NCBI GenBank assembly: GCA_029268515.1
Contig: JAQWNP010000012.1
Span: 62,001 to 126,000, forward strand
Direction: 5' to 3'
Origin: Phycisphaerales bacterium
GTDB taxonomy: Bacteria > Planctomycetota > Phycisphaerae > Phycisphaerales > SM1A02
DNA: 64,000 nucleotides
The translations under genes and the position numbers were made by a program. Position 1 is the stretch's first letter, and every line of letters begins with the position of its first letter. Of the stretch, positions 45,111-61,874 are shown one piece after another. The notes below the pieces were generated by a model. The model did not search any database. It was given only the letters and a program-made list of their open reading frames with translations, and was not told where the DNA came from.

Positions 45111-45138
45111 ACATCGGCCTTCCAAGGGAGGCCGATGT
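45111..45138 (+). terminator. Rho-independent terminator
   Basis: ACATCGGCCT pairs perfectly with AGGCCGATGT across an 8-nt loop, followed by six T. It ends the dockerin-like gene and also separates it from the convergent sixA. Confidence 0.9.
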
Positions 45139-45185
45139 TTTTTAACACCCAAACATAATGACTGGCGTTCAAAGCCAGGCCCCAA

Positions 45186-45674: not shown

Positions 45675-45719
45675 GACCAGATTGTACCGAACCCCGACCA
45701 TCACACTACACTGCAGCAA

Positions 45720-46193: not shown

Positions 46194-46202
46194 GAACGAG
46201 TC

Positions 46203-46760
46203 ATGCGAATCACCGTGAACAAGGATGTTGCAAAAAAAGAATTCCAGCCATTCAAGGATGACCCTGTCTTTGCTGAAAGCGCTGCCCTGGTCAGCCAAGG
46301 GCGAGATCCAGTGCAAATGCTCCAAGCACTTTCCATGGTTCCAGGTGGACTTCGCACTCTGGCAGCAGCAAGCCAGGCTGTCTACCCTGGCGGCACACTT
46401 GATCAGACCACAAAAGAACTCGTGATTATCAAGGCATCACAATCAAACAACTGCCAGTTCTGCCTCAATTCTCACGTTGATATTTGTCGCAATGCTGGCA
46501 TTAGCGATGATCCGATCAACATGCTTCTCGACAGTGAATCGCAGACACCAGCTCAACGAGCAGCCCTTCAATTTGTGGCTGCAGCAATGCAGGACAGCAA
46601 TGCGATCGCAGATAACATATTTGATGAGCTACGGACTCATTTTACAGAAGCACAGATTGCAGAACTCGCCCTGCTTCTTGGATACATCAACATGCTCAAC
46701 ATGTTCAATAACTGCCTACAAGTTCGCTATCAAAGTGACTACAAGCCTGCCTCTGATTAG
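46203..46760 (+). CDS. AhpD/carboxymuconolactone-decarboxylase-like peroxidase-related protein
   Basis: 185 residues. All-helical AhpD fold with the redox pair in SNNCQFCLNSHVDICRNAGI (C-x-x-C-x-x-x-H), preceded by LDQTTKELVIIKASQ. Such proteins reduce peroxides or act in the antioxidant relay with AhpC; many are uncharacterised. It starts 9 nt after the dCMP deaminase gene, so it is probably co-transcribed, and overlaps the convergent threonine dehydratase gene by 4 nt. Confidence 0.88.
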   Translation: MRITVNKDVAKKEFQPFKDDPVFAESAALVSQGRDPVQMLQALSMVPGGLRTLAAASQAVYPGGTLDQTTKELVIIKASQSNNCQFCLNSHVDICRNAGISDDPINMLLDSESQTPAQRAALQFVAAAMQDSNAIADNIFDELRTHFTEAQIAELALLLGYINMLNMFNNCLQVRYQSDYKPASD

Positions 46761-47704: not shown

Positions 47705-48179
47705 TGCTTTCCTCTGGAGACATGAGTTGCATACACCAAAGAGGACCTCTTATCACAAATCGACCATCAACCCTAGCCGCTGTTTTTGAATTGTGCATCG
47801 GATCCATACTTGCCCATGGAATACTACAAGAATGAGCGCCTAGAAGACGCCACAACTTAATAGGCCTGAGATGTAAGTGCTCTGAGTCAGCTGCTGCGTG
47901 AATGCTCAGCCCCATATTGACCACACCTAAAGAGAAACTTTGGTAGCTTCGATGGACCGAATTGGGGTTCGGTTTCTGAGGCAAATAGACATCGACCATT
48001 GGATTCCACAGTAAGCAGAAAGCAAGCCAAGCCATGATCGGGATCATCGCTATGGCATCAATTATGAGCAGCGTGACTGCCACAGGACTATTGGTCTCAA
48101 TGATCCAGATCAGTAAGCCGGCAAAGACCGCCGCCTCAACGAATACAAACAACCAGAAGTAGAGCGCCTTTCTTGTCAC
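47697..48179 (-). CDS. Two-helix membrane protein, hypothetical
   Basis: 160 residues from GTG 48179, chosen because GGAGGAG lies 6 nt upstream; the open frame to 48338 adds a non-hydrophobic, Arg-rich stretch. Two hydrophobic helices (ALYFWLFVFVEAAVFAGLLI and VTLLIIDAIAMIPIMAWLAF) are followed by a soluble C-terminal domain of ~90 residues (SLGVVNMGLSIHAAADSEHL area) that looks like a PH-like or bPH domain but is not certain. Coupled to threonine dehydratase by an 8-nt overlap. Confidence 0.75.
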   Translation of the reverse strand: MTRKALYFWLFVFVEAAVFAGLLIWIIETNSPVAVTLLIIDAIAMIPIMAWLAFCLLWNPMVDVYLPQKPNPNSVHRSYQSFSLGVVNMGLSIHAAADSEHLHLRPIKLWRLLGAHSCSIPWASMDPMHNSKTAARVDGRFVIRGPLWCMQLMSPEESSD

Positions 48180-48432
48180 AGTAAACTCCTCCGATGGTCG
48201 AATTCTACCAGTGGCTAATTTAACAGAACAAGCTTGTTCTCGGACGCTTATAAGGATCCATCTGAAGTGATAAAACCTCCTTTTGAGCAACTTTAGGTGG
48301 GCCCTACTGATGCCAAACATGGCCGCACTCCAAGCCATTCAATTACTATGAGATGACGTTGAGAGGCAGTATCATCATTGCCAACAAATACAGGCTGGCT
48401 CGATCGAGCCCAAACGAAGTAAAGGAGCCAGT

Positions 48433-48678
48433 ATGTCAGAGCAGACAAGAGGTTCGTGGAGTGGTTATCAGTGGATTATGGTGGTGCTCGTCGCTTGCTT
48501 AGTTGTGCTTCAGATTATATTTGTAGTCCGCATCAGCCAGGGTGTCAGCGCTCTCGAAGACGTTGGCAAGACGGCCAAACACCAAATGAAAAATGTCGGC
48601 ACCGCCGCTATTGGAGCAACTGATATCGCGGGCGCCTTGCTTAATCCAGATGGGAAAAAGAAGGACAAAAAGAAGTGA
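48433..48678 (+). CDS. Small single-helix membrane protein, hypothetical
   Basis: 81 residues: a short polar start, one helix (WIMVVLVACLVVLQIIFVV), then a helical stretch ending in a Lys-rich tail (DGKKKDKKK). AAGGAG precedes the start by 8 nt. No family recognised. A terminator follows. It stands alone between the threonine-dehydratase unit and the GG-repeat gene. Confidence 0.72.
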   Translation: MSEQTRGSWSGYQWIMVVLVACLVVLQIIFVVRISQGVSALEDVGKTAKHQMKNVGTAAIGATDIAGALLNPDGKKKDKKK

Positions 48679-48732
48679 TGGCCTAAAAGAACCCTCATTG
48701 ATCTGAATCCCATTATCGCCCTCAAACAAATT

Positions 48733-48758
48733 ACCCTGCAGGCATCATCCTGAAGGGT
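48733..48758 (+). terminator. Rho-independent terminator
   Basis: ACCCT pairs with AGGGT and CAGG with CCTG around a 6-nt loop, with a one-base bulge on each side, followed by TTTTTC. It ends the 81-residue membrane protein gene. Confidence 0.75.
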
Positions 48759-48878
48759 TTTTCTTGCTTAAAAATAGTCACAAAAATGCCTCCTTCATTG
48801 CAAGATATGTGAGGTCTCATGTCATTTGCATAAAGAGAGACCATGCTTAGTTGACACCCCCTCAAGGAGCATTCAGAG

Positions 48879-49643
48879 ATGAGTTTTAACCAAACAGGTA
48901 ATAAGGACGAGATCGCGATACTTCAGAGGCAAGTGAGAACCCTCAAATTCGTGATGTTTGGAGGAATGTGCTTACTTGCTGCCGGTATTGCCGTTGCAGC
49001 CACAAGCATCCAAGACGCCACTGATGTCGTAAAAGCAAGAGAATTCAAACTTGTCGATGATGAAGGAAAAACACTTGCGATACTTGGCCGAAATGACGAC
49101 GGCAGTGGTGGACTTTTGATCAATAACAAGGATCAACAGATTGCTGTAGGACTTGGTGCTGGCCCTGACGGTGGCGTGTTGGCCATTCGCAACAAGAATG
49201 GCCAACGTGCAGCAATACTGACCGCTGCCCCCCATGGCGGCAAGTTGATGACACTCAATGAAAATGGGAAAGCCAGCGTATCACTCGGTTCAGACTCCTC
49301 AAATGGTGGCATGTTGATGACACTCAATGAAAATGGGGACGTCAGCGTATTACTCGATTCAGATTTCAATGGTGGCCTGTTGTCCATCCGTAACAAGGAT
49401 GGAAAGCAAGTCGCGGGACTTGCTACGAATCCAAAGGGTGGCGTGTTGAACATCGCCAACAAGGATGGGAAAACCGGTGCGTTACTGAATGCGACTCCAC
49501 TTGGTGGCAGGCTTTTCATCAACAACAAGAACGAGAAGCCAGCTGCAACACTTAGTGGGTTTCCAGATGGTGGCGTCTTGCGCATCCGCGACAACACCAA
49601 CAAGACAATCTTCTCAGCACCTCAAAGTAACGAAAAGAATTAG
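48879..49643 (+). CDS. GG-repeat protein A (membrane-anchored, about eight 22-residue repeats)
   Basis: 254 residues. The N-terminus is a short coiled coil (IAILQRQVRTLKF) and a membrane/signal-anchor helix (VMFGGMCLLAAGIAVAATS), then a REFKLVDDEGKTLAIL block. From about residue 77 come eight tandem ~22-residue units, each beginning GG-x-L-x-I-x-N-K-D/N-G-K and ending x-L-x-x-x-P-x. One unit is duplicated almost unchanged (MTLNENG at both). The regular hydrophobic spacing suggests a beta-solenoid exposed outside the cytoplasm. Related short-repeat proteins exist in other bacteria, but I know no function. AAGGAG lies 12 nt before the start. Confidence 0.8.
   Translation: MSFNQTGNKDEIAILQRQVRTLKFVMFGGMCLLAAGIAVAATSIQDATDVVKAREFKLVDDEGKTLAILGRNDDGSGGLLINNKDQQIAVGLGAGPDGGVLAIRNKNGQRAAILTAAPHGGKLMTLNENGKASVSLGSDSSNGGMLMTLNENGDVSVLLDSDFNGGLLSIRNKDGKQVAGLATNPKGGVLNIANKDGKTGALLNATPLGGRLFINNKNEKPAATLSGFPDGGVLRIRDNTNKTIFSAPQSNEKN
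49244..49337 (+). repeat. Recent 69-nt in-frame tandem duplication
   Basis: A 25-nt segment at 49244-49268 recurs exactly at 49313-49337, 69 nt (23 codons) apart, and the bases after each copy remain similar. It duplicates one GG-repeat unit. Confidence 0.85.
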
Positions 49644-50662
49644 TAACAAGACGATTCTTAAAATAGCCGAGCTGTGTGACATCTTTGAATTGTGATTTCA
49701 AGATGTTCCTATAGCTGCGGCAACGCAACTGCCTAGATACAGCAATGGCGTCCTACATGACAACATGACGCATTTCTTGCCAATATTCCGTGTCCCACCT
49801 CAAACCAGGAGCACCAAGACATGAAAGTGAATTCCAGCACGATAGGAGCAATGCTCTTCATCGCTCTCATCATCACAGGAAGCGCCACGGCCATCGCAGA
49901 TCTCTCGAGAATACACAACTGGAACATGGACAACGATCCTGGGTGGACTCGCAATGGCGAATGGGAATTTGGACAGCCGCAGGGACTTGGTGGATCATTT
50001 GGACTGCCAGATCCAACCAGCGGACATACCGGCGACAATGTGATGGGCATGAATCTTGCCGGCGACTATTCTGTCGAGATCGGCGGCCCCTACGAGCTCA
50101 TTGCAGGTCCGATCGATTGCACTGGATTTGTCTCTAGCGAACTACACTTCCAACGCTGGCTCAATATCGACTGGCAACCATGGGTGTACTCTTGGATCCA
50201 TATCAGTTACGACGGTGAGAAGTGGTCTGAACTGTGGAACAACGGCAACGTTAATGAAATTACCGAAGACCAATGGACAAAATGGACTTTTGATATTTCA
50301 TCTGTTGCGGACAATCAACCAACTGTCTACATCAAATGGTCTTACCAAGTATCGAGCGCCGCGTGGGACTACTCAGGCTGGAATCTTGATGACGTTGAAA
50401 TATGGGCCCGACCAATTAGATGCGAAGGCGATACCAATCAGGATCAAGTTGTGGATATAGAAGATTTTAGTGAACTACTTATTCAGTTTGGTGAAGTAGG
50501 CATTGGGCTTTCCGCTGACTTCAACGGCGATTTTAATGTTGACGCTGATGACTTTTCGCTTCTTCTGATAAACTTTGGAAATGACTGCAACACAGATTCC
50601 ATAGCAGCCAGTGCGGTGTTGCAAACACCAAAGGGTGGCGTGTTGAACATCGCCAACAAGGA
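49431..50662 (+). repeat. 35-nt perfect direct repeat pair (49431-49465 and 50628-50662)
   Basis: Exact 35-nt match, 1197 nt apart, between GG-repeat protein A and the 3' end of the neighbouring dockerin-like gene. Both copies are read in the same frame (PKGGVLNIANKD). This is a probable recombination or capture junction. Confidence 0.9.
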
Positions 50663-50705
50663 CGAGAGGCCAACGGGATTTACCCCTGCAGGAGCAAAGC
50701 AATGA
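49821..50705 (+). CDS. Secreted beta-sandwich protein with dockerin-like pair and captured GG-repeat tail
   Basis: 294 residues with a signal peptide (~1-26). Residues ~30-198 form a jelly-roll/MAM-like beta domain (HNWNMDNDPGWTRNGEWEFG, SWIHISYDGEKWSELW, SGWNLDDVEIWARP) as seen in carbohydrate-binding proteins. The dockerin-like pair occupies 201-256 (DTNQDQVVDIEDFSELL and DFNGDFNVDADDFSLLL). It should end at FGNDCN, but 38 more residues follow, including PKGGVLNIANKDE (270-282), a GG-repeat unit identical in DNA to protein A. The stop overlaps the next GG-repeat gene start (ATGA). It may be a fusion created by recombination. Confidence 0.78.
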   Translation: MKVNSSTIGAMLFIALIITGSATAIADLSRIHNWNMDNDPGWTRNGEWEFGQPQGLGGSFGLPDPTSGHTGDNVMGMNLAGDYSVEIGGPYELIAGPIDCTGFVSSELHFQRWLNIDWQPWVYSWIHISYDGEKWSELWNNGNVNEITEDQWTKWTFDISSVADNQPTVYIKWSYQVSSAAWDYSGWNLDDVEIWARPIRCEGDTNQDQVVDIEDFSELLIQFGEVGIGLSADFNGDFNVDADDFSLLLINFGNDCNTDSIAASAVLQTPKGGVLNIANKDERPTGFTPAGAKQ

Positions 50706-51118
50706 ACTCAGAAAAACGTATTGAATCGCTCGAAGGTCAGGTGAGAACACTCAAACGCATCGTTTACGGCTTCGCCTGTTTACTTGTAGCAGGCATTGCA
50801 CTGGCTACAACAAGTGTGCAAGACATTCCTGATTTGATTCAGGCAAAAAAGTTTGAGGTCATCGATAAAGAAGGCAAGGCTGTTGGACATTTCAGTGCTG
50901 GCACCAATGGCGGGAAGTTAAACATCTTCAATAAGAAAGGGAATTCAGTTGCAGGCCTTACTTCTGGAAAGAATGGTGGTGGATTGGTCATCATGAGTAA
51001 TGACGAGAGAATCCTTGCAGGGCTTACTGCGCATGAAGATGGTGGCGGCCTAATCATCTACAACAATCAGATGAAGACACTCTTCCGAATACCTGAAAAA
51101 GAAGCCGCCGAAATTTAA
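50702..51118 (+). CDS. GG-repeat protein B (short, three repeats)
   Basis: 138 residues. The N-terminal 40 residues (coiled coil KRIESLEGQVRTLKRIVYG, then anchor helix ACLLVAGIALA) are nearly identical to protein C 10.5 kb away. Then comes a KKFEVIDKEGKAV block and three 22-residue GG units, ending EKEAAEI. AGGAG is 7 nt before the start, inside the upstream dockerin-like gene, so the two are translated together. Function unknown; probably exposed on the outer face of the inner membrane or secreted after signal cleavage. Confidence 0.8.
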   Translation: MNSEKRIESLEGQVRTLKRIVYGFACLLVAGIALATTSVQDIPDLIQAKKFEVIDKEGKAVGHFSAGTNGGKLNIFNKKGNSVAGLTSGKNGGGLVIMSNDERILAGLTAHEDGGGLIIYNNQMKTLFRIPEKEAAEI

Positions 51119-51150
51119 ACTGACGGCCTTGCTTAAGCCACAAAAGAAAC

Positions 51151-51178
51151 ACAGCCCCGGCTCTAAAACCGGGGCCGT
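51151..51178. terminator. Bidirectional terminator
   Basis: ACAGCCCCGG pairs with CCGGGGCCGT (one mismatch) across an 8-nt loop. It lies between convergent GG-repeat gene B and uup. The T-rich side is on the minus strand. Closely related hairpins occur at 58911 and 60520. Confidence 0.75.
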
Positions 51179-51250
51179 GTTACAAAAACCAAAGAAAAGC
51201 ATTGCCGCTTCCATAGCAATCACGCTGATCGCATTTGTATTTTAAAAACC

Positions 51251-53056
51251 TCAGATGCTCTCAAGCTCTGCCCATCGAGCGTAAAGCGCCTTCACATTTT
51301 TTTGCGCTGCTGATAACGCCTGAAAGGTTTCAGAAGATTGCTTATGATTCTTTGCCAGCGACGGATCTGCCGCTGCTGTTTCTAACTGCTTAAGCTCAGC
51401 CTCTGCAGTCAAGATAGCTGCTTCCATTCCCTCATACTCTCGCTTCTCTTTGTACGAAAGTTTTCTCTTACTTGTATTGACAACGTTTGGGGCAGGCTCC
51501 TTATCTTTCTTTACCGCGGCCGCACCCGAGGAACCACCTTTCTTCAGATATGTGATCCACTGCTTACGCGTTGCAAACTCTCTTGCGTTACCACCATCGT
51601 CAATACCGACATATTCAGTGGCAATTCGATCCATCATGAATCGATCGTGTGTCACAAGTACCATCGCCCCTGGAAATTCCAAGAGAGCCTGCTCAAGAAC
51701 TTCAAGGGACGGAATATCCAGATCATTGGTTGGCTCATCAAGCAATAGAACGTCAGCTGGCTTCAACATCAAATTAGCAATCAATACCCGTGCTTGTTCA
51801 CCGCCTGAGAGATTACTGACAAAGGTCGTCAATTGAGATTTGTCAAACAGAAATCGTTTCGCCCAACCACTCACGTGCACCTGCTTGCCACGATAATCAA
51901 CCATATCACCGATAGGACAAAGTGCTTCCTGTAATGTTTGCGTCGGCACAAGCATGTCACGATGCTGACTAAACGTGACGACTCGCAAATCTGCGGCACG
52001 CTTAATGGTGCCTGAGTCAGGTTTCAAATCACCAGACATCAGCCGCAACAACGTAGTCTTGCCAGCCCCATTAACACCGAGAAGCCCAATGCGACGCCCA
52101 GGCGTCAACGTGAGATCTAGGGAATCAAATAACTTCTTTTCGCCCATTGCCTTGGCAACATTATGTAATGCCAGAAGTTTCTTTGTCTTTCGCTCAGTCG
52201 CCTGAAACTCGATCGTTGTCGCACGAGTTGGTGCTGCATTTCTTTCTTTGGTCGCCTTTAATTCAGCTCGGCGACTCACCGTGTCACGTACTTGTGTCTT
52301 GTTGCGAGTTTGCCGCCCTTGAATCCCCTGCCGCAACCAAGCTGTATCGCGACGCACTTTATTCGCCAATGCTGACTCGGCAGCCTCTTGCGCATCAAGA
52401 AATGCTTCCTTGCGATTGACAAATTCAGTGTAGTTACCCACGACCTCAAAAATACCACCCGGATAAGCCGGCGAAAGCTCCACGATCCGACTCGCCGTAT
52501 TCTCTAAAAATTGACGATCATGGGTTACGAATAGCATGGCAATTCGAGATCGCAAAACAAACTGCTCAAGCCACAACACCCCCTCAAGATCAAGATGATT
52601 TGTTGGCTCGTCCAGCATCAAGACATCAGGCTCACGGCAAAGTGCACGCGCAATAGAGAGACGTTTTTTCCATCCTCCTGACAAGGTGCTGACAAGGCGA
52701 TCAAAATCCTCAAATCCGAGCTTTGACAATGAGATGGCTGCCAATGATTCGGTATCAACACGATCATTAACTTCAGATTTCAACGCTTCCCGAATCACAG
52801 ACATTGGCGTGGCCCCGTCGGGAAACACGTCATCTTGTTCGATATATACGAGGCGCAATCCGCGACGCCTATTAACTTCGCCTTCATCTGGTTCTTCAAG
52901 ATCGGCCAGAATTTTGAGTAGTGTCGACTTGCTAGCGCCATTGGGGCCAATAAGCCCCAGCCGATCACCATCACCAACATGCAGCGATAGACCTTCAAAC
53001 AGCACATTTGAAGGGAATGATTTCGCTAGGTCACGGACGGAAAGAAGTGTGCTCAT
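51251..53056 (-). CDS. uup: ABC-F family ATPase, Uup type
   Basis: 601 residues, two ABC domains joined by an alpha-helical linker and a C-terminal coiled-coil domain (LSYKEKREYEGMEAAI to the end) that marks Uup. Signature and Walker B: STLSGGWKKRLSIARAL, VLMLDEPTNHLD and SNLSGGEQARVLIANLM, VLLLDEPTNDLD. Uup binds branched DNA or ribosomes. In the first domain Walker A is GPNGASKST (37-45): the usual Gly before Lys is Ser. The second is normal (GVNGAGKTT). Soluble; no membrane partner, as expected for ABC-F. Confidence 0.93.
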   Translation of the reverse strand: MSTLLSVRDLAKSFPSNVLFEGLSLHVGDGDRLGLIGPNGASKSTLLKILADLEEPDEGEVNRRRGLRLVYIEQDDVFPDGATPMSVIREALKSEVNDRVDTESLAAISLSKLGFEDFDRLVSTLSGGWKKRLSIARALCREPDVLMLDEPTNHLDLEGVLWLEQFVLRSRIAMLFVTHDRQFLENTASRIVELSPAYPGGIFEVVGNYTEFVNRKEAFLDAQEAAESALANKVRRDTAWLRQGIQGRQTRNKTQVRDTVSRRAELKATKERNAAPTRATTIEFQATERKTKKLLALHNVAKAMGEKKLFDSLDLTLTPGRRIGLLGVNGAGKTTLLRLMSGDLKPDSGTIKRAADLRVVTFSQHRDMLVPTQTLQEALCPIGDMVDYRGKQVHVSGWAKRFLFDKSQLTTFVSNLSGGEQARVLIANLMLKPADVLLLDEPTNDLDIPSLEVLEQALLEFPGAMVLVTHDRFMMDRIATEYVGIDDGGNAREFATRKQWITYLKKGGSSGAAAVKKDKEPAPNVVNTSKRKLSYKEKREYEGMEAAILTAEAELKQLETAAADPSLAKNHKQSSETFQALSAAQKNVKALYARWAELESI

Positions 53057-53430
53057 AACATAAAAACGGAAACACTAAAAAAACGGAACCAATGCTGCCA
53101 CAGAAGAGGCAATAAGAGAGGCCTTTAACCAGCGACTCGTTCTGACTACCTATCTGATCCTTGGCGGAGAGAAAGAATGATAGTTAGATTGCGGAGCAGC
53201 GATCAAGAATATCTGGCTTTTTCTCAAGCATTGATCTCATCTTCAGATCCCATGAAGCAATCGTCGCCTCTTAGCAACAAAACGATGCAAGAACGGCCAC
53301 GGGATAGCAATCTAGCGAGAATCATATGGGCCAGCTATCGAATTGATAGTGGGTCAATTTGCAACAACTTGAGCGAGTAGCTACTTGCTGAGATCTCCAA
53401 TGCAAATGATCTCACATCTGCCTCTAGGCC
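53057..53430. other. Intergenic region, no convincing gene
   Basis: 374 nt between uup and the convergently unrelated esterase gene. A 67-codon frame at 53177-53380 has GGAG 7 nt before its ATG, but no recognisable protein pattern. I do not call it a gene. Confidence 0.4.
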
Positions 53431-54465
53431 TTATGGCGCACAGGGGCCCCACTGCTCAAGAAGAATAGTGAAGTCATCAATATTGACAATGAGATCATTA
53501 TTGATGTCCGCAACATTAACACCTGCGGCTCCATAGTTGACCAGCAACAATGAAAAGTCAGTAATATTCACCACTCCGGACTGATCAATATCTGCTTCAC
53601 AATTATCCTCTGACTCAGGTTGCTTGGGATGACTGTCAAAGAAGTCGAAGATCAGATTCTTAGCCGCGTTGTTATAGTTCGGCCAGTGGTCCACATTTTC
53701 ATATCGCCACAACTCCACATCACCATTGTCTGGACAACCTTCGAAAACCACTCGGTTGACCTGACCATTACTATCAAATGCGGGCCCCATTTCTACAGGG
53801 CCAGAAGTACAACCATTAAAGGCGGCCCATTGGGCTGTTGAGCCAGGTGCTCCCGGATAGTCATTCCAGCCAAAGGTGCCACCGTTGTAACTGACCGTAT
53901 CATCAGCGGTGCCATGGGTGTGGAGTACGCTCACTGGTTGGCTAGGATCACACTGCGCCGGGTCATCCCAAGTCGCGCCTGATCCAGGAACAATAGAGGC
54001 AATAAGATCTGCTCGATCACACGCGATTCGGTAGCACATAAAACCACCGTTTGAATGGCCAATCAGATGAATCTTATTGAAATCGACGTTGTACTGGGTA
54101 TCGATGTACGCAATAAGGTCTTCAAAATAACCGACATGATCTGGACTGTTTGGTGAGCCGCCAAAACTACAGCAAGCATTCGTTGCATTCCAATAAGTGT
54201 TACCGAACAAGTCTGTTGGCGCTGTGGGGTAAGCGTAGATATAACCACGACTGGTGGCCAGATCTTTGAATCGATACCAATTTTCTGTATCTGGGCCCGT
54301 ACTTGTATAACCATGAATGAGCAGTACCAAGCCAGAGGGCTCTGATGCATCATGCCCTGCAGGAAGATGCACTGGCACTTGATCGACGGCCTGTTGAGCA
54401 TTGAGGCTTGTTGATGATGCTATGCCGATGGTCAATACACTAATAAGTAGGAAGGGGTGTCGCAT
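53431..54465 (-). CDS. Secreted PHB-depolymerase/feruloyl-esterase-like hydrolase with dockerin-like pair
   Basis: 344 residues from ATG 54465, preceded by ACGGAG at 5 nt (ATG 54486 is longer). A signal peptide covers ~1-23. The esterase domain is complete: VLLIHGYTSTGPDTENW (oxyanion), LIGHSNGGFMCYRIAC (nucleophile Ser), HTHGTADDTVSY (acid) and NVDHWPNY (His); this is the LpqC-like family of secreted polyester/feruloyl esterases. The last ~60 residues hold two dockerin-like loops (DIDQSGVVNITDFSLLLVNY and DINNDLIVNIDDFTILLEQW) ending CAP. Extracellular; substrate likely an ester-linked polymer. Confidence 0.9.
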   Translation of the reverse strand: MRHPFLLISVLTIGIASSTSLNAQQAVDQVPVHLPAGHDASEPSGLVLLIHGYTSTGPDTENWYRFKDLATSRGYIYAYPTAPTDLFGNTYWNATNACCSFGGSPNSPDHVGYFEDLIAYIDTQYNVDFNKIHLIGHSNGGFMCYRIACDRADLIASIVPGSGATWDDPAQCDPSQPVSVLHTHGTADDTVSYNGGTFGWNDYPGAPGSTAQWAAFNGCTSGPVEMGPAFDSNGQVNRVVFEGCPDNGDVELWRYENVDHWPNYNNAAKNLIFDFFDSHPKQPESEDNCEADIDQSGVVNITDFSLLLVNYGAAGVNVADINNDLIVNIDDFTILLEQWGPCAP

Positions 54466-55227
54466 GTTATCTCCGTTTAACTGCATTCACGTAAACCCGT
54501 CCCCACTAAGTATTTATTAGGAATACGATCTCCACGACCATTCGCCTACTTTAATTCATAAATTTTTTTATTCTGACGTAAACGAGTGTTTACATCAGGA
54601 ACATTAGGCACAACTGCAAATGGCCTGTTCATCTGCTTTACTCTTCATGCTTAATTCTTCAATTTCATCAAGATTTCTATATGAGGACTCGCTTCTACTC
54701 ACCTCCATCACCAGCAATACAATCGTCGTGAAGCTCAATACTCAACTGATTGATAACCCCATAACTGTTCAGACTAGAATGTTAAGATTCCACTTTGAGC
54801 GAACCCAGGCCAGATGGGTACAAAGACAATGACAGCGCCGAGAATCTGACGAGGCGCAGCAGACCTCGCTCATTGACTCGCGTTGATGCGACGGCATTTC
54901 GTGACATTTTTGACACAATTGTGACTGGAGAATAAAGAACACCCCCATCATTTTGATTTTTTGCTTGCGATCGGCACACAAGACTGCTTCACTAATTGTT
55001 TACAAGCATTTTCACTAATGATATTCGGGGGGATCGATGCGCTACTTATTAGTCACATTTGTGATCACATGCACAATGACTGCGCTGCCCCACTTCGCCA
55101 AGCACCAATGCACGCCCCCAAGAAACTCCATCGGCTGATTAGATAATTAAGGCCCCACCGAAGAGGCCGTCAGATGCAGCCAGGCAATAATTGCTGCATT
55201 GCCTCGCATCCGACATAATGCGAACTC
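54466..55227. other. Long intergenic region, mostly featureless
   Basis: 762 nt that is AT-richer than its surroundings, with only short unconvincing frames on either strand. A 10-bp inverted repeat at 54574-54597 lies ~110 nt before the esterase. A weak hairpin (ATGCAGC 55174-55180 with GCTGCAT 55193-55199) precedes the flavoprotein gene. Confidence 0.5.
54574..54597. promoter_or_regulatory. Operator-like inverted repeat
   Basis: TGACGTAAAC and GTTTACATCA, nearly perfect inverse arms (one mismatch) around GAGT. It lies ~110 nt upstream of the esterase start. A dimeric regulator could bind here; nothing identifies which. Confidence 0.3.
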
Positions 55228-56502
55228 GTGGCAGACACCAAGAATATTGATATCGCGATAGTGGGAGCTGGCGCCGCGGGCCTGATGGCGGCCATCTGCG
55301 CTGGTCGTACCGCCAAGAAACACCATCGATCTCTTCAGATTGCTGCATTTGATGGCGCACGAAAGGTCGGAGCCAAGATTCTCGTCGCTGGTGGCGGACG
55401 CTGTAATGTGACGCATCATCATGTCGATGAATCTTCTTACGCTGGTGGATCTAGCAATACCATTCGCAATGTTCTTCAGCGCTTTGATGTGGCACAGACC
55501 ATCGAATTTTTCAGAGAACTCGATGTTCACCTCAAACAGGAAGAAACAGGAAAGCTCTTTCCCACGACCGACTCCGCGCGCACGGTGCTTGATGCACTGC
55601 TTAAGGAAATGAAAAGTGCAGGCGTTGAACTTCATCATCCCCAGCGAGTCCATACCGTTGAACAAACAAGCCCAGGCTTTGTTATCGAAAGCGAGCAAGG
55701 ACGGATTCACTGCAAACGACTTATTCTCGCCAGCGGCGGCATGGCGCTTCCAAAGACAGGCTCAGACGGAGGTGGGTATAAGCTTGCCAAGTCACTAGGA
55801 CATTCCATAACGGAGCGTGTGTTTCCTGCACTTGTTCCACTTATTCTCGAGAAAAGCAGCAGCTTACGCTTACTTTCAGGACTAACCGTTCGCACCACCA
55901 TCGAACTTCGAAGCTGCACCGGCAGACGCCTTCAGTCATTTACAGACTCAACACTCTGCACACACTTTGGCTTATCCGGCCCATCGGTGATGGATATCAG
56001 CCGATACTTCACCGCTGCACGTTTTAGCGATCCAGATGCACATCTCGTCATATGCTGGCTTCCAGAATCCACGCGTGACCAGGCCGATGTCGAACTTCGT
56101 GAGCTTGGCAAACGAAGTGTCGGCCGATGGCTTCGTGATCAACTCCCAGATCGACTGGCCGATGCAATCTTCCAGTTTGCTGATATCGACCCTACTACCG
56201 CCGGCCATCAATTCGACCGCAGCGCACGCAGTCGGTTCCTTGACGCGATCTTTCAGATGCCTCTACCAGTTACTGGAGACCGTGGATTCACACATGCGGA
56301 AGTCACCGCTGGAGGCATCCCACTCAGTGAATTAAAAGCAAGCTCAATGGCCTCAAAATGCTGCGACGGCCTCTACCTCTGCGGAGAAATCTGCGACGTG
56401 GATGGTCGCATTGGCGGCTACAACTTCCAATGGGCCTGGGCCAGTGGACATGTGGCTGGATCTCATGCCGTTGAGTCACTGCTCCCCGCTGCTGATGGAT
56501 AG
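55228..56502 (+). CDS. NAD(P)/FAD-dependent oxidoreductase (HI0933/YhiN/BaiN family)
   Basis: 424 residues from GTG 55228. The Rossmann motif IAIVGAGAAGLMAAI binds FAD ADP, GARKVGAKILVAGGGRCNVTH is the family hallmark, LILASGGMALPKTGSDGGGY follows, and the C-terminal YLCGEICDVDGRIGGYNFQW closes the FAD site. Family members reduce bile-acid-like or other conjugated C=C bonds in gut bacteria, but most are uncharacterised. Cytoplasmic. Convergent with the cyclase gene, 99 nt apart. Confidence 0.93.
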   Translation: MADTKNIDIAIVGAGAAGLMAAICAGRTAKKHHRSLQIAAFDGARKVGAKILVAGGGRCNVTHHHVDESSYAGGSSNTIRNVLQRFDVAQTIEFFRELDVHLKQEETGKLFPTTDSARTVLDALLKEMKSAGVELHHPQRVHTVEQTSPGFVIESEQGRIHCKRLILASGGMALPKTGSDGGGYKLAKSLGHSITERVFPALVPLILEKSSSLRLLSGLTVRTTIELRSCTGRRLQSFTDSTLCTHFGLSGPSVMDISRYFTAARFSDPDAHLVICWLPESTRDQADVELRELGKRSVGRWLRDQLPDRLADAIFQFADIDPTTAGHQFDRSARSRFLDAIFQMPLPVTGDRGFTHAEVTAGGIPLSELKASSMASKCCDGLYLCGEICDVDGRIGGYNFQWAWASGHVAGSHAVESLLPAADG

Positions 56503-56601
56503 CATGCCTCCCCCGGCAAACTTGCTCGGCCCACCAATCTTTTATTTGGTGCACGTTTGTTCCGATGTCGCACCCTGCGTTACGGTGGCCCAATCTCTTA
56601 A

Positions 56602-57390
56602 TCACGAAGAACACAATGCGACCGCTCGACACCAACCAGCACTGGCACGAGCAATTTTGACGGGTAAACACGAAATCCAAAAGCCATGGGCGCGGGGCAA
56701 TTGATCAAGATTCGCTAACTTTTCAATCTGACAATATTCCTGACTGATACCTGCAAAGTGAGCTGGCCAAATATAACGACCATCACCGGTTCTCATATAA
56801 TCTTCTTTCATGTCCACGAAAGGTCGATCAATGGTGTACGCATCAATACCAATGACGCGTACCCCCTGCTCTACCAACCAGAGCACACCATCGCGCCCCA
56901 GACCTGGCTGGCGAAAGTATTCGCTTGTATGAATTCGTTGATCAGCACCAGTCCACAGCAAGACAATATCGCGATGTTTCAATCTGTATTGCATACGATC
57001 CAAGGCGAGCTTGAGATCCTCAACTGCAATCTCCTGCCCTGATTCCTTATGCCTCACATCAATGCGCACGCCAGGAGCAAAGCACCACTCAAGAGGAACC
57101 TCATCAATACGCCGAGCAGGACGTCCACCGGATTCCGGTCCATAATGATATGGAGCATCAACATGGGTACCAGTGTGTGTTGTCGCCTGGATGTTTTCTA
57201 TCGCCCACCCCTTACCTTGCGAGTACACCAAATCATCGGTTTTGACGCCAAAGCATTCCTGAATTTGCTCTCGTCCTTGCTCTTCGTGCGTCACATATTC
57301 AATTGAAGGTGGCCACGGCTCACTGACTGCTGCATCTTGCAATGGAACAGATAAATCAATTATCCGCAGTTGGCCTAAAACATCATTCAT
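56602..57390 (-). CDS. Cyclase family protein (kynurenine formamidase-like)
   Basis: 262 residues. The metal motif TTHTGTHVDAPYHY is the HxGTHxDxPxH signature of the cyclase/kynurenine formamidase family, preceded by RIIDLSVPLQDAA. Additional conserved VIGIDAYTIDRPF follows. Members hydrolyse N-formylkynurenine or isatin or act in polyketide cyclisation. Substrate unresolved. No other tryptophan-degradation gene is adjacent. Start ATG 57390. Confidence 0.9.
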   Translation of the reverse strand: MNDVLGQLRIIDLSVPLQDAAVSEPWPPSIEYVTHEEQGREQIQECFGVKTDDLVYSQGKGWAIENIQATTHTGTHVDAPYHYGPESGGRPARRIDEVPLEWCFAPGVRIDVRHKESGQEIAVEDLKLALDRMQYRLKHRDIVLLWTGADQRIHTSEYFRQPGLGRDGVLWLVEQGVRVIGIDAYTIDRPFVDMKEDYMRTGDGRYIWPAHFAGISQEYCQIEKLANLDQLPRAHGFWISCLPVKIARASAGWCRAVALCSS

Positions 57391-57768
57391 GACTCACCCC
57401 TTATTCAAGTTGCATACCCTTGTGCAGCACATTATTGCACATGAGTATTCTCGGCTTCAATACCTGAACCGTGCGTGAATCCAGATGGTGACAGGTTTGG
57501 CCACGTGGAGAATGACCAAAATCTGGCCTGCCAAGCACCACCAGCATAAAAGGCGACATGAACAACCCCGATGGATTGCAAGCAATCGATGATTCCATTT
57601 TCGATTGCTGCCATACCCGACATTTCAACCATCACCGCTGATTTATGGCTATTTGAGCTTACCTTCACGAAGAGCTTATGCCGACAAATAACCGTAGTAG
57701 ATCCATATGGTTGTCGTGCCTCAGACAGTGAACCTGAGCGACTCTAAACCCAACTCGAGTAAGTCACT
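57391..57768. other. Intergenic region, possible decayed coding material
   Basis: 378 nt upstream of the cyclase gene and before the membrane protein. A 78-codon minus-strand frame from GTG 57668 to 57432 has protein-like texture (VVHVAFYAGGAWQARFW) but no ribosome site and no family match. It may be a gene remnant; I do not call it. Confidence 0.35.
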
Positions 57769-58782
57769 TTGAATCGTGAGAGTCCTGCTTTGATTAAGTG
57801 GTTTAGAACGCACACCTCTGAGCTAGTTTTTCTACTGGCACTCGTCATTGTCACTTACAATTTCGTCGGCCTCAGAATCCAATTTGGTCAAGATCCTTGG
57901 ATCGATTATATATTTCCTCGCGTTTTGGACTTTGACGGCGAGAAGCCGTGGCAGTACCGAATTTTGATTCCGCTCCTTTATAACCAAATATGGTCGCTAC
58001 AAATCCCATTTCTCGACCTAACACGAATCGTCAAACTTATCGAAATAGCCTCAACGATAATGCTGGTGTTGGCATTCAGGTATTACCTGTCGTTGTTTAT
58101 CAAGGACAAACAAGCAACTTGGATGATGTCACTGTTACTGTTTTTTGTCCTACCGTTCCATTATTTCTTTCCAGACAGCTATCACGCATTCTATTGGTTT
58201 GATACGCCTTCACTACTCTTTTTTACAGTTGGAATGATTCTGCTGTACAAGAAGAAGTGGATTTGGTTCTATCCGTTGTTCGCTGTTGCCACCTTAAACC
58301 GTGAGACAACTTGCTTTCTGACTTTTATATATCTTTTTACCGCACTGGGAAATGAGAGACTGCTGACAATTGTCTTTCACTGCGCCGCTCAATTCTTTAT
58401 ATGGATGATCATTAAGACTGCACTTTTCGTATTGTTTATTGATAATCCAGGGAGTCAAGCCGGCTTTGAAATATCCTTCCATGAACAAGATGTGACTCAC
58501 TTGGCCGACAACTTCCATTACTTCATGAATCCAAAAAACGTGCCATCATTTTTGAGTATATTTGGGTTTGTATGGATTCCCGTCTTGTTCCTACACGGCC
58601 AAATCAAAGATCAATTCGTAAAGAGATCCTTGCTCGTATTTATCCCTCAGGTATGCGGAATGATGATCGTAGCGAACATCTACGAATTACGAATATTTTC
58701 AGAGACGATCCCTGTTTTCCTCGCTGCCTTTTGCATCATCTTGAGTGAACGGTGCTCATTTTCCAGACCACAATTACAGTGA
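57769..58782 (+). CDS. Polytopic membrane protein, function unknown
   Basis: 337 residues from TTG 57769, which has only a weak GAG upstream. About eight to nine hydrophobic helices (LVFLLALVIVTYNFVGLRI, TIMLVLAFRYYLSLFI, WMMSLLLFFVLPFHYFF, LLFFTVGMILLYKKKWIWFY). A short loop has TLNRETTCFL, a motif common in undescribed bacterial membrane proteins that resemble lipid-linked-sugar transferases. Composition is clearly richer in A/T and Phe/Trp/Ile than neighbours. No partner gene nearby. Function not assigned. Confidence 0.8.
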   Translation: MNRESPALIKWFRTHTSELVFLLALVIVTYNFVGLRIQFGQDPWIDYIFPRVLDFDGEKPWQYRILIPLLYNQIWSLQIPFLDLTRIVKLIEIASTIMLVLAFRYYLSLFIKDKQATWMMSLLLFFVLPFHYFFPDSYHAFYWFDTPSLLFFTVGMILLYKKKWIWFYPLFAVATLNRETTCFLTFIYLFTALGNERLLTIVFHCAAQFFIWMIIKTALFVLFIDNPGSQAGFEISFHEQDVTHLADNFHYFMNPKNVPSFLSIFGFVWIPVLFLHGQIKDQFVKRSLLVFIPQVCGMMIVANIYELRIFSETIPVFLAAFCIILSERCSFSRPQLQ

Positions 58783-58910
58783 TATGCATTCATCTCCCTA
58801 CGGCCCAGCCCGCTGCTAAGCGAAGTTTCAATCTCCTAAAAAACTCTCATAAGACAGCCGGCAGAGCCAAGCCGTAATAACCCGTTGAATTTGAATACTC
58901 CACACAAATA

Positions 58911-58940
58911 AACAGCCCCGGCTCTAAAGCCGGGGCTGTT
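58911..58940. terminator. Bidirectional terminator
   Basis: A perfect 13-bp stem: AACAGCCCCGGCT with AGCCGGGGCTGTT around CTAA, between two convergent genes. Related to the hairpins at 51151 and 60520. Confidence 0.88.
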
Positions 58941-58986
58941 CTTCAATAAATACCAACTCGTGGTTTACTGGCAATCAATCTCTCAT

Positions 58987-59991
58987 TTACAGATTATTTC
59001 CTACCGGATCTCCAAGATTCACCATGCTTTGGAAGTATTCGATCACACCAGAGTCTGAAACATTTAGTGCGGGCCACTGTGGCCAGTCGAAGGTATCGTT
59101 CATGAATGGTTGCATCTGATCCCAACTGAGTACTGGAAGGTGATTCACGTCGTGATTAATAGCAACGCCTTCAATCGATCGGAAGCCGTGTGTTCTTCCA
59201 TGCATCCAACCACCGTAGTGAGGCTCCATCTTGAGTGTGTTGATAAACCGATCCGCAAGTCCATTGTCTTCGAGATAGTCGGCGTATCCTGCATGGCTAA
59301 AGTCACGAACCATATCCATAACAAGCGCTTTCATCTCGACCGGGTCTTCAACAAGTCGCGCGGTTCGCTGAATGTCTGCCATGATTTGTGGATCATATTT
59401 GTCATCAGCAATCCAGCCAACTTTGGCGCCTTGCATGGCATACCAGAGACCAACACCCAGAAGGTCGTTGCCCCAAGCCTGGCTGTTATTGGTCAGAGAT
59501 TCGTCAAATGCCCACTGACCAACTTCTTCGATTTCCGCTGAGGACAATCCAAAGAATGCTCGGAGATCGTTGTAGGCCAACATAGCCTCGGTCGTAATAG
59601 GGGTTCGGCCACCCACCAGTTCATCATGATGTGAGTTGTTATTCGAGCCGTGGAAGTCTCCCCAGCACGTGATATCGACAAATTCGCCCATGCACGGATC
59701 CATATGATCGTGCGGGCATGCACCCCACCCAGTAAGCATTAACGTGAAGTCATCAAAGTCGACAACAAAGTCACCATTAATGTCTGCGACATTACTTCCA
59801 GTCATGCCATAGTTGACTAAAAGAATGCTGAAGTCATTGACATCAACAACTTCGTTTTGATCGATATCTTCTGGGCACATAGACATTTCGCCTTCAGCCA
59901 AAGCATTGCTAGCAACACAAACTGGCGTCAAGGCAATAAGTCCACAAATACCACTCCTCCAAGTGCGTTTATTCATTCTTTGCTTTCTCAT
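58987..59991 (-). CDS. Secreted protein with N-terminal dockerin-like pair and unknown helical domain
   Basis: 334 residues from ATG 59991, which has GAGGAG 6 nt upstream; the open frame continues to 60066. Signal peptide ~9-32. Unlike the other four, the two calcium-loop modules sit at the start of the mature protein (39-92: DIDQNEVVDVNDFSILLVNY and DINGDFVVDFDDFTLMLTGW), followed by a ~240-residue domain rich in His, Asp, Trp (DITCWGDFHGSNNNSHHDE, EPHYGGWMHGRTHG). Clustered His and Asp could bind metal; no enzyme family recognised. It ends near the terminator at 58911. Confidence 0.8.
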   Translation of the reverse strand: MRKQRMNKRTWRSGICGLIALTPVCVASNALAEGEMSMCPEDIDQNEVVDVNDFSILLVNYGMTGSNVADINGDFVVDFDDFTLMLTGWGACPHDHMDPCMGEFVDITCWGDFHGSNNNSHHDELVGGRTPITTEAMLAYNDLRAFFGLSSAEIEEVGQWAFDESLTNNSQAWGNDLLGVGLWYAMQGAKVGWIADDKYDPQIMADIQRTARLVEDPVEMKALVMDMVRDFSHAGYADYLEDNGLADRFINTLKMEPHYGGWMHGRTHGFRSIEGVAINHDVNHLPVLSWDQMQPFMNDTFDWPQWPALNVSDSGVIEYFQSMVNLGDPVGNNL

Positions 59992-60579
59992 TGCGTACTC
60001 CTCTGCCCCACCACTTTTCCTTAGTGCGTCCCTCTCAGGTGTCGCCTTTGACTTTGGCGATTTCACCTGAATTACGTTCGTGGATTCAGCTTGTTCCTCT
60101 CTTTTGAAAAGACTTTGTGACAGATTTGACCTCTACTCAGAGGCCTAAGAGTTCAGAGCAGAAAATCTAATGCAACACTGAGCAATGCCAACACAAACAA
60201 GTAGAAATGCTTTTCATGTGCTTTAGAGCGTCATAGCGGCTGATTTCATCACTACACACCGAGTAAACGAATGATTACAAACTGTTCAAATGATCCTAAT
60301 TGTTCTAGAAAATGGTAAGACAGTGCAAAATCCTACAAACGATATATTCCGTTGAAGCACTGCCTCTAGCAGTTTTGTATTGAACTTTTTAGGGGATAAA
60401 AATACACCTTTGCGGATGGTTAAGGAGAGATTTATCCGGCATCACCGGCCTTACTTCAAGACGCCGTCGCCGAAATTAAACACTCAATAGGATCGTTGCA
60501 TTAATTGCAAAAAATCTAAAACCGCTCCGGCGTCACAACCGGAGCTGTTGTTTTATTCATGTCATAGCGCACCGCCTGA
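59992..60579. other. Intergenic region with decayed GG-repeat material
   Basis: 588 nt without a real gene. It holds an imperfect duplication of a CATAGCG...CTGATTTCAT block (about 60231-60250 and 60560-60584), a terminator at 60520 and, at about 60455-60475, codons reading DAVAEIK before TAAACAC. The latter resembles the EAAEI ending of GG-repeat gene B. The region is probably the scar of an old gene copy. Confidence 0.4.
60520..60549 (+). terminator. Rho-independent terminator
   Basis: AACCGCTCCGG pairs with CCGGAGCTGTT (one mismatch) across an 8-nt loop, followed by GTTTTATT. It sits downstream of the decayed material rather than an intact gene, suggesting a lost gene. Confidence 0.65.
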
Positions 60580-60789
60580 TTTCATGGCGGCGGCTTCTTG
60601 GTCCTGGCCAATAAAGACAAAAACATCGGCGCAGTACTAGCTGCAACCTCAGATGGTGGCAGTTTGGATATCTTTGATAATCGCGATAATGTGACCTTTC
60701 AAGCTCCGCAAAAAGAAGCGGCAAGACAATGGAACAAATCGCCAAGAACGTTCGCCCAAACAAGTTTGTTGTTCCACTATTCGTATTAG
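60580..60789 (+). pseudogene. GG-repeat protein fragment (fourth family copy, N-terminus missing)
   Basis: In one frame following TGA 60577, the DNA encodes GGGFLVLANKDKNIGAVLAAT, then SDGGSLDIFDNRDNVTFQAP followed by QKEAAR: two GG units and the family C-terminus. No anchor helix, no start codon and no ribosome site remain upstream. The tail runs past the normal family stop to 60789. It is a truncated remnant. Confidence 0.7.
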
Positions 60790-61181
60790 CGTGGCTATTT
60801 TAGATCGTGAGCCTTTTTATCTCATGCGTTTACATGGTATACCCCGACGAAAACTCAATAGAGATGCTCGGGATTGAACTCTTTTTTATCGTTATGTTCC
60901 CTTGGGACTGGTTTGCTATTTTTCCAGCTATTTATTTCGTTATCAATATCTTGTTTCTATGGTCTCCGAAGTACTTGTTTCGATGCCTTCGCATTAAGAA
61001 TACGCCCGTTTTGTATTGCTGCCTCATGGCAGTCGGCGCGGCTTTGGGATGGCATTGTTTGTTTTTTATAGCGAGAATAGAAAACGTCTACGTTGGAGGC
61101 TACCTCTGGGTGATTACGCTCACTCTTATACCAATAGCCGTCTTGCTACCGAATACCACAAAAGAAGCCGCAGAGGCTTAG
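60729..61181 (+). pseudogene. Polytopic membrane protein interrupted by in-frame amber codon
   Basis: From ATG 60729 the frame encodes MEQIAKNVRPNKFVVPLFVL then AWLF, meets TAG at 60801-60803, and continues unbroken to the stop at 61181 (about 151 codons). The stop falls inside what reads as one hydrophobic helix (LFVLAWLF, stop, IVSLFISC), so the original protein crossed the membrane here. Three more helices follow. The frame could restart at GTG 60807 (124 residues), but that start has no ribosome site. The C-terminus TTKEAAEA resembles GG-repeat protein endings. Sequencing error cannot be excluded. Confidence 0.65.
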
Positions 61182-61199
61182 CTCAACAGGAGTCGCATA

Positions 61200-61874
61200 A
61201 TGAATTCAGAGAAACGTATTGAATCGCTCGAAGGCCAAGTCAGAACACTCAAGCGAATCGTTTACGGTGTGGCCTGCCTACTCGTGGCAGGCATTGCCTT
61301 AGCTGCGACAAATATGCAAGGCGTGCCGAACATCATTGAAGCCAAGATGTTCCGCGTAATCAATGATGACGGAAAACCAATGGCCGAACTCTTTGCAGAA
61401 CATGGCGGCAATTTGGCCATCTTTAACAAGGACGAGAAAGTGGTCGTAGGAATAGGCGCCATACAAAATGGTGGCGTGTTGCAAATCAATAACAATGCCC
61501 AAAAGAAGGTGGCGGCACTCGGCGCCGATTCAGAATGTGGCATGCTCACCATCGCCAACAATGATGAGAAAACACTCGCAATAATCTATGCGACCCCAGA
61601 TGGTGGCTTGTTGCAACTCAAGAACAAGGCCGAAGAGACACGTGCAGCGATCGGCGTGAATTCAGATGGTGGCCTACTTGCCATCGCCGATAAAGATGGC
61701 AAGCTGGCTGCAGAACTGATTGCAACCCCAAATGGTGGTGAGCTTGCTATCCTCAACAAGAAGTCGAAGGTCGTTGCGGAACTCACTTCGGAGCCAGATG
61801 GTGGCGCGCTGATCATTAACAGCAACGACGGCAAAACAAACTTCAAAGCACCACCATCAAAGGAAATCGACTAG
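61200..61874 (+). CDS. GG-repeat protein C (seven repeats)
   Basis: 224 residues. AGGAG is 8 nt before the start. The first 40 residues match protein B almost exactly (KRIESLEGQVRTLKRIVYG, ACLLVAGIALAATN). A MFRVINDDGKPMAEL block follows, then seven ~22-residue units, each GG/CG-x-L-x-I-x-N; one unit begins CG rather than GG and one lacks the Asn. It ends FKAPPSKEID. Its 3' end overlaps the convergent thioredoxin-like gene by 4 nt. Anchored by the N-terminal helix with repeats outside; function unknown. Confidence 0.82.
   Translation: MNSEKRIESLEGQVRTLKRIVYGVACLLVAGIALAATNMQGVPNIIEAKMFRVINDDGKPMAELFAEHGGNLAIFNKDEKVVVGIGAIQNGGVLQINNNAQKKVAALGADSECGMLTIANNDEKTLAIIYATPDGGLLQLKNKAEETRAAIGVNSDGGLLAIADKDGKLAAELIATPNGGELAILNKKSKVVAELTSEPDGGALIINSNDGKTNFKAPPSKEID

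What the first reader, a model, noticed from the sequence alone, without database searches (positions are those of the whole stretch)
48879..61874. Paralogous family of membrane-anchored 22-residue GG-repeat proteins
Three intact genes (48879, 50702, 61200) and one remnant (60580) share a coiled coil plus anchor helix followed by 8, 3, 7 and about 2 copies of a 22-residue unit, GG-x-L-x-I-x-N-K-D-G-K-x-x-A-x-L-x-x-x-P-D. The repeat number differs widely while the anchors of the second and third are almost identical, so repeats expand and contract on a fixed base. Comparable short-repeat proteins are known in other bacteria but I know of no assigned role. A beta-solenoid fold outside the membrane is inferred. 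This is the best candidate here for an undescribed system.
Basis: partly seen in the sequence, partly recalled or inferred. Interest (0 to 1): 0.75.

Follow-up and report, generated by a model that had tools for sequence, protein, structure and literature searches.

The report
Anchored beta-hairpin repeat protein family
These genes make a little-known family of bacterial proteins, probably held in the cell membrane by one helix, whose main part is predicted to be a ribbon of beta-hairpins that varies in length and appears to be swapped between copies of the gene.

Summary
Three intact genes (254, 138, 224 aa) and a remnant at 60580 lie where stated; 0 of 500 shuffles reach the 22-residue signal. 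A second remnant is fused to the 3' end of the dockerin ORF 49821-50705. The genome holds six further copies, and 53 of 61 genomes listed in its bacterial family match. No Pfam, NCBIfam or PHROGs model covers the three proteins. The beta-solenoid guess is not supported: AlphaFold models have two strands per unit, and the best matches are single-layer hairpin sheets (engineered OspA, MORN1, CPAP TCP). Hydrophobic positions lie mainly on one face. 'Repeats on a fixed base' is supported and extended: the syntenic orthologue of w48879 lacks four units; in six orthologue pairs anchor and array diverge alike, but close paralogues share anchors and not arrays; w50702 shares its anchor with w61200 and its array with a gene of another species. 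In three orthologue pairs the more polar face is well conserved; between paralogues it is diverse. I read it as an exported binding scaffold with exchangeable arrays. Recombination is well supported, the fold is predicted only, function and export are inferred. A new variant of a known kind of fold, not a wholly new system.

The parts
48879..49643 (+). w48879: N-terminal helix (coil plus hydrophobic stretch, model residues 8-42), then 9 hairpin units (8 GG units plus the first)
49234..49382 (+). two near-identical units of w48879 at DNA level (period 69, 85% matches): a recent unit duplication
50628..50662 (+). second remnant: 35 bases identical to 49431-49465 of w48879, in frame at the 3' end of dockerin ORF 49821-50705; not found at the syntenic site in G001
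50702..51118 (+). w50702: anchor like that of w61200, array (4 units) like that of G001 locus L077; lies in a stretch (about 50612-51218) without match in the syntenic G001 contig
60580..60738 (+). remnant of about 2 units and a C-terminal tail, no anchor
61200..61874 (+). w61200: anchor helix (model residues 3-37), 8 units (7 GG units plus the first)

Best explanation
A family of exported scaffold proteins. A short coiled coil and one membrane helix hold each protein in the cell membrane. Outside, 22-23-residue units each form a beta-hairpin, and successive hairpins join edge to edge into one long single-layer antiparallel sheet, about 1 nm per unit. Hydrophobic positions gather on one face, which is probably buried against another copy gathered by the coiled coil, or against a partner. 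The other face carries the residues that differ between paralogues and probably binds a partner or ligand. One long copy is widespread in the bacterial family, in several genera between a nitrilase-like gene and a small gene of unknown function. Short copies duplicate, gain or lose units, and recombine so that arrays and anchors are re-paired. Shown by computation: family, period, unit-number change, anchor/array recombination. Predicted: fold. Inferred: membrane anchoring, export, oligomer, binding role.
For: Fold: w48879 model mean pLDDT 82.0, ten-residue means 84-93 from residue 61 to 250; Foldseek best 3cka_A E 7.6e-9, and 2fkj_A TMq 0.64; VIA Z 14.7, rmsd 5.0, 216 aligned to 2fkj_A, then MORN1 and CPAP TCP/G-box at 12.7. 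w61200: Z 12.8, rmsd 4.2, 154 aligned to 6kk9_O. A sequence profile of the same alignment hits engineered OspA 3eex_A at E 7.2e-6. Faces: columns 3, 5, 14, 16, 18 are 85% hydrophobic, columns 2, 4, 6, 15, 17, 19 34%; with Asn column 7 and hydrophobic column 13 put back, 72% and 41%. Second face identical in orthologues at 73/84 (C11), 34/36 and 31/36 (L106 with L107, L105); in paralogues at 2/28, 13/48, 2/24. Recombination: anchor minus array nucleotide identity -0.01 to +0.05 in 6 orthologue pairs; with one common cut, L098a/b 0.94 against 0.50, C5a/b 0.90 against 0.53, w50702/w61200 0.82 against 0.54, and the reverse, w50702/G001 L077, 0.58 against 0.77. Export: relatives with an apparent lipobox (L130) or signal peptide (L134) carry the same units (by eye). 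Constraint: C11 pair dN 0.10, dS 1.9.
Against: Models rest on 18 and 11 sequences, pTM 0.56-0.57, monomer only; residues 135-155 of w61200 are below pLDDT 50. The tool warns that Z under about 13 can mean only a common arrangement for repeats; only the w48879 match stands clearly above. The best single-sequence PDB hit of w48879 is a de novo protein, 4d8h_A, E 0.0096. The face columns were chosen after seeing the hydropathy table, and column 13 breaks the pattern. The same spacing would fit a two-sheet solenoid. D or N precedes the turn glycines in only 22-23% of 396 units. CPAP TCP has no hydrophobic core, both its faces are exposed and it is mostly monomeric (PMC3776556 passages). Over all 42 within-genome pairs the mean anchor-array difference is 0.055, with 28 positive, and w61200/C5b shows none (0.67, 0.67). 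Two faster pairs do not keep the second face better (w48879-L078 13/31 against 13/25 on the hydrophobic face; w50702-L077 17/24 against 19/20). No ligand or partner is known.
Confidence: 0.5

Rival explanations
1. Structural spacer or tether: the sheet is a stiff rod of set length in the periplasm or at the surface (ruler, strut or coat), and residues on the polar face carry no specific recognition.
For: Unit number would set length: 3 to 21 units found, roughly 3-20 nm (nm per unit is general knowledge). The core copy keeps 14 units and 435 aa within the genus.
Against: In the core copy and in L105-L107 the more polar face is at least as conserved between orthologues as the hydrophobic face, yet nearly unrelated between paralogues; a plain spacer would not need that. 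Core unit counts vary from 12 to 21 among 13 loci with shared neighbours.
Confidence: 0.25
2. Parallel two-sheet beta-solenoid (curlin-like): each 22-residue unit is one coil with its hydrophobic residues inside.
For: Hydrophobic columns 3, 5, 14, 16 and the amide at 7 resemble the curlin unit (curlin pattern recalled, no call), and a solenoid would hide the hydrophobic side chains without a partner.
Against: Both models match single-layer meander sheets best, over most of the array; a sequence profile also points to engineered OspA; turns such as N-K-D-G-K and P-D-G-G in the window proteins recall the PDG turns of CPAP TCP (PMC3776556 passages). No curlin match in the proteins scanned against Pfam.
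Confidence: 0.13
3. Decaying, selfishly spreading gene family: short copies multiply by recombination with little function, as the remnants and chimaeras suggest.
For: Two remnants beside three intact genes; copies at different sites in the sister species.
Against: The core copy is under strong constraint (dN 0.10, dS 1.9), w50702-L077 less so (dN 0.23, dS 1.1); the three window frames are intact.
Confidence: 0.12

Closest known systems
Engineered OspA 'peptide self-assembly mimics' and the central sheet of Borrelia OspA
   Same: Single-layer hairpin sheet; first in the structural and profile searches.
   Different: In the engineered forms globular parts cap the sheet, and in OspA only three strands are exposed (PMC3776556 passages); no Pfam OspA match here; these proteins have an N-terminal helix and a largely hydrophobic face.
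MORN repeat proteins (MORN1, junctophilin)
   Same: Hairpin per 23-residue unit (PMC7725318 passages); VIA Z 12.7 to T. brucei MORN1; unit number varies.
   Different: No MORN match in Pfam for the window proteins, no YEGEW motif in the unit; the MORN1 structures dimerise through C-termini (abstract).
TCP10/G-box domain of CPAP
   Same: Free-standing meander of hairpins with PDG turns (PMC3776556 passages); VIA Z 12.7.
   Different: Centriole protein, mostly monomeric, both faces exposed, binds a proline-rich peptide (same passages and abstract); no Pfam match here.
PE_PGRS proteins of mycobacteria and Vsa/Vlp proteins of mycoplasmas (recalled, not searched)
   Same: Conserved N-terminal anchor with variable repeat arrays; recombination between copies.
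   Different: Different sequences; no evidence here of switching within a population.

Membership tests
OspA family (Pfam lipoprotein family) | Pfam profile match | tested here: not met
   No such match at E up to 1 for the three window proteins.
OspA family (Pfam lipoprotein family) | Single-layer antiparallel sheet | tested here: met
   Predicted models match engineered OspA, Z 12.8 and 14.7; predicted only.
OspA family (Pfam lipoprotein family) | Lipoprotein anchor | tested here: not met
   Window proteins start with a 35-residue predicted helix (w61200, w48879); each of the three has a cysteine near the start of the hydrophobic stretch but no strict lipobox (by eye; motif recalled).
MORN repeats | Pfam MORN match and GxG/YEGEW motif | tested here: not met
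   No MORN match for window proteins; unit consensus lacks YEGEW. Relative L133 hits MORN_2 only at E 0.11.
MORN repeats | 23-residue hairpin units in one layer | tested here: met
   Unit spacing mostly 22-23; VIA Z 12.7, rmsd 5.5, 197 aligned to 6t4r_CCC; predicted only.
CPAP TCP10 domain | Pfam profile match | tested here: not met
   No match.
CPAP TCP10 domain | Free meander, both faces exposed, PDG turns | tested here: inconclusive
   Fold matches (Z 12.7); D or N precedes the turn glycine in 22% and 23% of 396 units for the two turns; one face is largely hydrophobic.
Curlin / beta-solenoid amyloid | Pfam curlin match | tested here: not met
   No curlin row for the window proteins at E up to 1, nor for the relatives.
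Curlin / beta-solenoid amyloid | Parallel two-sheet solenoid | tested here: inconclusive
   Predicted models match meander sheets; no coordinates inspected, no solved structure.
RHS/YD repeats | Pfam RHS match | tested here: not met
   None for window proteins; relative L133 RHS E 5e-4, below cut-off. RHS shells do appear in the Foldseek lists with query TM about 0.2.
Membrane anti-sigma factors | NCBIfam antisigma match | tested here: not met
   No such match in the window proteins at E up to 1; L133 at 24 bits against a cut-off of 100.

The most novel reading that the evidence does not exclude
A recombination-driven recognition system of planctomycetes: a small set of fixed membrane anchors onto which single-layer beta-sheet arrays are exchanged, extended or shortened, so that the variable face of each array gives each copy a different partner (polymer, neighbour cell or phage), beside one long copy kept under strong constraint.
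Probability: 0.25. Interest if true: 0.75.

Novelty: new variant of a known kind. Interest (0 to 1): 0.55.

Why it matters
Single-layer beta-sheets with no core are rare; the CPAP authors knew only three other natural proteins in the PDB with such a stretch in 2013 (PMC3776556, passage of the author response). A bacterial family with many natural arrays, 3 to 21 units long, would give a large sample for asking how such a sheet folds and binds. The anchor/array exchange is a concrete, testable case of modular diversification in planctomycetes. The members scanned match no curated profile, so the family is invisible to routine annotation.

Tried and rejected
Dockerin docking: short copies often lie near GC-type dockerin genes (5 of 7 loci in this genome within 3.1 kb; no formal test, and the 3.1 kb limit was read off the data). 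I asked whether the arrays could receive dockerins. Against it: dockerin matches at E up to 1e-5 are confined to 32 of 392 genomes, in families f1, f2, f8 and f9, while arrays are found in 88 of 392, many in other families; f2 genomes G061, G066, G070 and G074 have several to many dockerin matches and no array match.

Anti-sigma role: a weak NCBIfam hit in relative L133. The family model matches 112 of 119 genomes, in most listed rows over its first half; the window's genome has 2 matches whose places were not listed. No window protein matched it.

Plasmid or phage origin: no plasmid match for w61200, though plasmids of a Nitrospirota bacterium carry relatives of L133; no PHROGs match for 18 members. 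In the BFVD fold list 23 of the 50 rows shown are named MORN-repeat proteins, a shared fold only.

Holin-like hit of the small ORF 48433 (TIGR01673, E 0.012, below cut-off) was not followed. The Nitrospirota protein has no PDB sequence hit below E 0.7.

Curlin and other solenoids did not appear in the VIA rows; that is not evidence against them. TarM and, in Foldseek, RHS and teneurin shells do appear.

Limits of the samples: loci L094-L109 were found with a pattern in the anchor, so their anchors are alike by selection; the orthologue control and the pairs within G000 do not depend on it, except that L105, L106 and L107 (three of the six orthologue pairs) came from that call. In one search the anchor cut for C5a was misplaced; one search repeats the key pairs with one common cut. 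G001 is fragmentary (540 contigs), so absence there is weak. The 40 loci of the synteny map were my choice. The 54 of 101 includes the window's own genome; 27 genomes without a match were not listed.

Literature: searches listed no paper that describes this family; some searches listed only part of their hits, I judged by title and start of abstract, and the library holds open-licence papers only. Seen: abstracts and passages of PMC3776556 and PMC7725318, search listings for the rest.
Full report
What is there. The 22-residue period exceeds all 500 shuffles in each of the three proteins. A matrix of the unit finds 396 units in the 47 family proteins it was trained on and 26 in one shuffle of each. 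The unit is roughly G-x-L-x-I-x-N-x-x-G-K-x-V-A-x-L-x-A-x-x-D-G. A second remnant was missed: 35 bases at 50628-50662 are identical to part of the array of w48879 and are read in frame as the tail of the dockerin ORF 49821-50705.

How far the family goes. The window is part of a 3.2 Mb genome in 20 contigs; a search with w61200 gives 18 matches at E up to 1. Apart from the window genes they resolve into six further genes on five contigs, two on C5, one each on C11 (435 aa), C14 and C20, and one cut by the end of C4, plus the 60580 remnant, two weak matches (E 0.09 and 0.97) and repeat matches to the same genes. Of 101 related genomes searched, 54 match at E up to 0.001: 53 of the 61 listed as family f1 (own genome included) and G097 of family f2. 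A profile of 16 anchors plus first units matches 88 of 392 genomes of the phylum. Of 16 named loci found with an anchor pattern, 12 are from MAGs titled Phycisphaerales, Phycisphaerae or Phycisphaera. Relatives outside the phylum: a 264-aa hypothetical protein on plasmids of Candidatus Manganitrophus, Nitrospirota. No window protein and no family member scanned passes a curated cut-off in Pfam or NCBIfam, and none of 18 members matches PHROGs at E up to 0.01.

Core copy and short copies. I mapped 41 loci, 40 chosen plus L022. The map labelled an array gene in 33; in 8 its ORF choice hid or missed it. In 13 loci a long copy lies next to a nitrilase-like gene (9), a small gene of about 165 aa (10), or both (6); in a fourteenth, L086, an array gene found lies beside the small gene. 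The nitrilase-like protein of L022 passes the Pfam CN_hydrolase cut-off but no NCBIfam cut-off. Unit counts in the 13 run from 12 to 21. The two species of the window's genus both have 435 aa and 14 units, 83% identical, dN 0.10, dS 1.9. In other genera a long copy lies near squalene-hopene cyclase or an oxidoreductase gene.

Fold. AlphaFold gave w61200 mean pLDDT 76.5 and w48879 82.0: a 35-residue N-terminal helix, then two strands per unit. Foldseek and VIA-align rank engineered OspA first for both (Foldseek E 1.1e-6 and 7.6e-9; VIA Z 12.8 and 14.7). Next in VIA come the CPAP TCP/G-box domain and MORN1, and for w48879 also radial-spoke MORN proteins and junctophilins. RHS and teneurin shells follow in Foldseek with low TM-scores, TarM in VIA for w61200. 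A profile of the same alignment also finds engineered OspA first by sequence (3eex_A, E 7.2e-6), while w48879 alone hits only a de novo protein (4d8h_A, E 0.0096). So a solenoid is unlikely, not excluded. I did not inspect coordinates; the antiparallel reading rests on these matches and on DSSP. The tool warns that Z below about 13 may be only a common arrangement for repeats.

Faces. In 396 units columns 3, 5, 14, 16, 18 are 85% hydrophobic and columns 2, 4, 6, 15, 17, 19 34%. I chose these columns after seeing the hydropathy of each; with the conserved Asn 7 and the hydrophobic column 13 put back the figures are 72% and 41%. A monomer would expose a greasy face, so a partner or oligomer is likely; the CPAP authors mention a phage protein whose meander has one hydrophobic face buried in a trimer interface (PMC3776556, passage). 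The coil (I-L-V-L heptads, by eye) would suit that.

Export. Relatives with the same units carry other export signals: L130 begins with an apparent lipobox and L134 with an apparent signal peptide (by eye). Basic residues precede the hydrophobic stretch in the window proteins, which suggests an outside array. This is inference.

Unit gain and loss. In G001, of the same genus, the contig syntenic to 45001-54476 has a copy of 166 aa in place of w48879 (254 aa): 88 aa and four units fewer. About 600 bases with the second remnant and w50702 have no match there; about 210 bases stand in their place. The gene most like the array of w50702 lies in G001 beside a stretch that matches contig C5 of the window's genome, where C5a and C5b lie. 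Against fast turnover, three of four same-genus pairs have equal lengths: 435/435, 184/184, 138/138. The first and the w48879 pair rest on synteny, the other two on similarity.

Anchor and array recombine. In six orthologue pairs anchor and array have nearly the same nucleotide identity (differences -0.01 to +0.05). With one common cut, close within-genome pairs do not: L098a/b 0.94 against 0.50, C5a/b 0.90 against 0.53, w50702/w61200 0.82 against 0.54, w50702/C5b 0.72 against 0.59, but w61200/C5b 0.67 and 0.67. The opposite case, w50702 and G001 L077, has anchor 0.58 and array 0.77, which a difference in rate alone does not explain. Over all 42 within-genome pairs the mean difference is 0.055, 28 of them positive, so the signal lies in the pairs whose anchors are alike. 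Fast divergence of arrays after duplication may contribute.

A recognition face. Identity on the second face against the hydrophobic face is, between orthologues, 73/84 against 55/70 (core copy), 34/36 against 26/30 and 31/36 against 23/30 (L106 with L107 and L105); between paralogues 2/28 against 12/23 (C5b/C5a), 13/48 against 26/40 (w61200/w48879) and 2/24 against 8/20 (L098a/b). The two faster pairs do not follow: w50702-L077 17/24 against 19/20, w48879-L078 13/31 against 13/25. Hydrophobic positions swap among I, V and L, which lowers their identity. Conserved within a copy and different between copies is what a specificity face would give. No partner is known.

Verdict. A real, broadly spread family without a curated profile; a new variant of the single-layer hairpin sheet, with a predicted anchor helix, a largely hydrophobic face and modular arrays. 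Its role as a binding scaffold is the likeliest of several and is not shown.

Noticed in passing
window 51138-51178 and 58900-58939: A 41-base intergenic stretch occurs twice (85% identical), and 58911-58940 pairs with its own reverse complement (93%): possibly a small palindromic element.
   Followed up: no
L023 5889-6443 and L079 (G001:C432): Copy C20 and its G001 partner are 176 of 184 residues identical with dS 0.31, while the seven other gene pairs of these genomes compared have dS of 1.1 or more, or saturated: recent transfer, or a misplaced contig.
   Followed up: no
window 49821-50705, 53431-54486, 58987-60066; L024 3165-4424: Proteins with dockerin-like C-termini surround the array genes; 51 GC-type dockerin matches at E up to 0.001 in the genome.
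   Followed up: partly
L020 913-1362 and 4443-5093; L024 5716-6189: Small membrane proteins ending in a CxxCG...CxxCG zinc-ribbon-like motif lie near array genes on two contigs (by eye).
   Followed up: no
ends of contigs C4 and C14 and small contig C5 (6.5 kb) of G000: Several array genes lie at or near contig ends, as expected if the repeats break the assembly; copy number may be underestimated.
   Followed up: no
L067, L087, L088, L089: In other f1 genera a long copy lies near an oxidoreductase gene and/or squalene-hopene cyclase: a second shared neighbourhood.
   Followed up: partly
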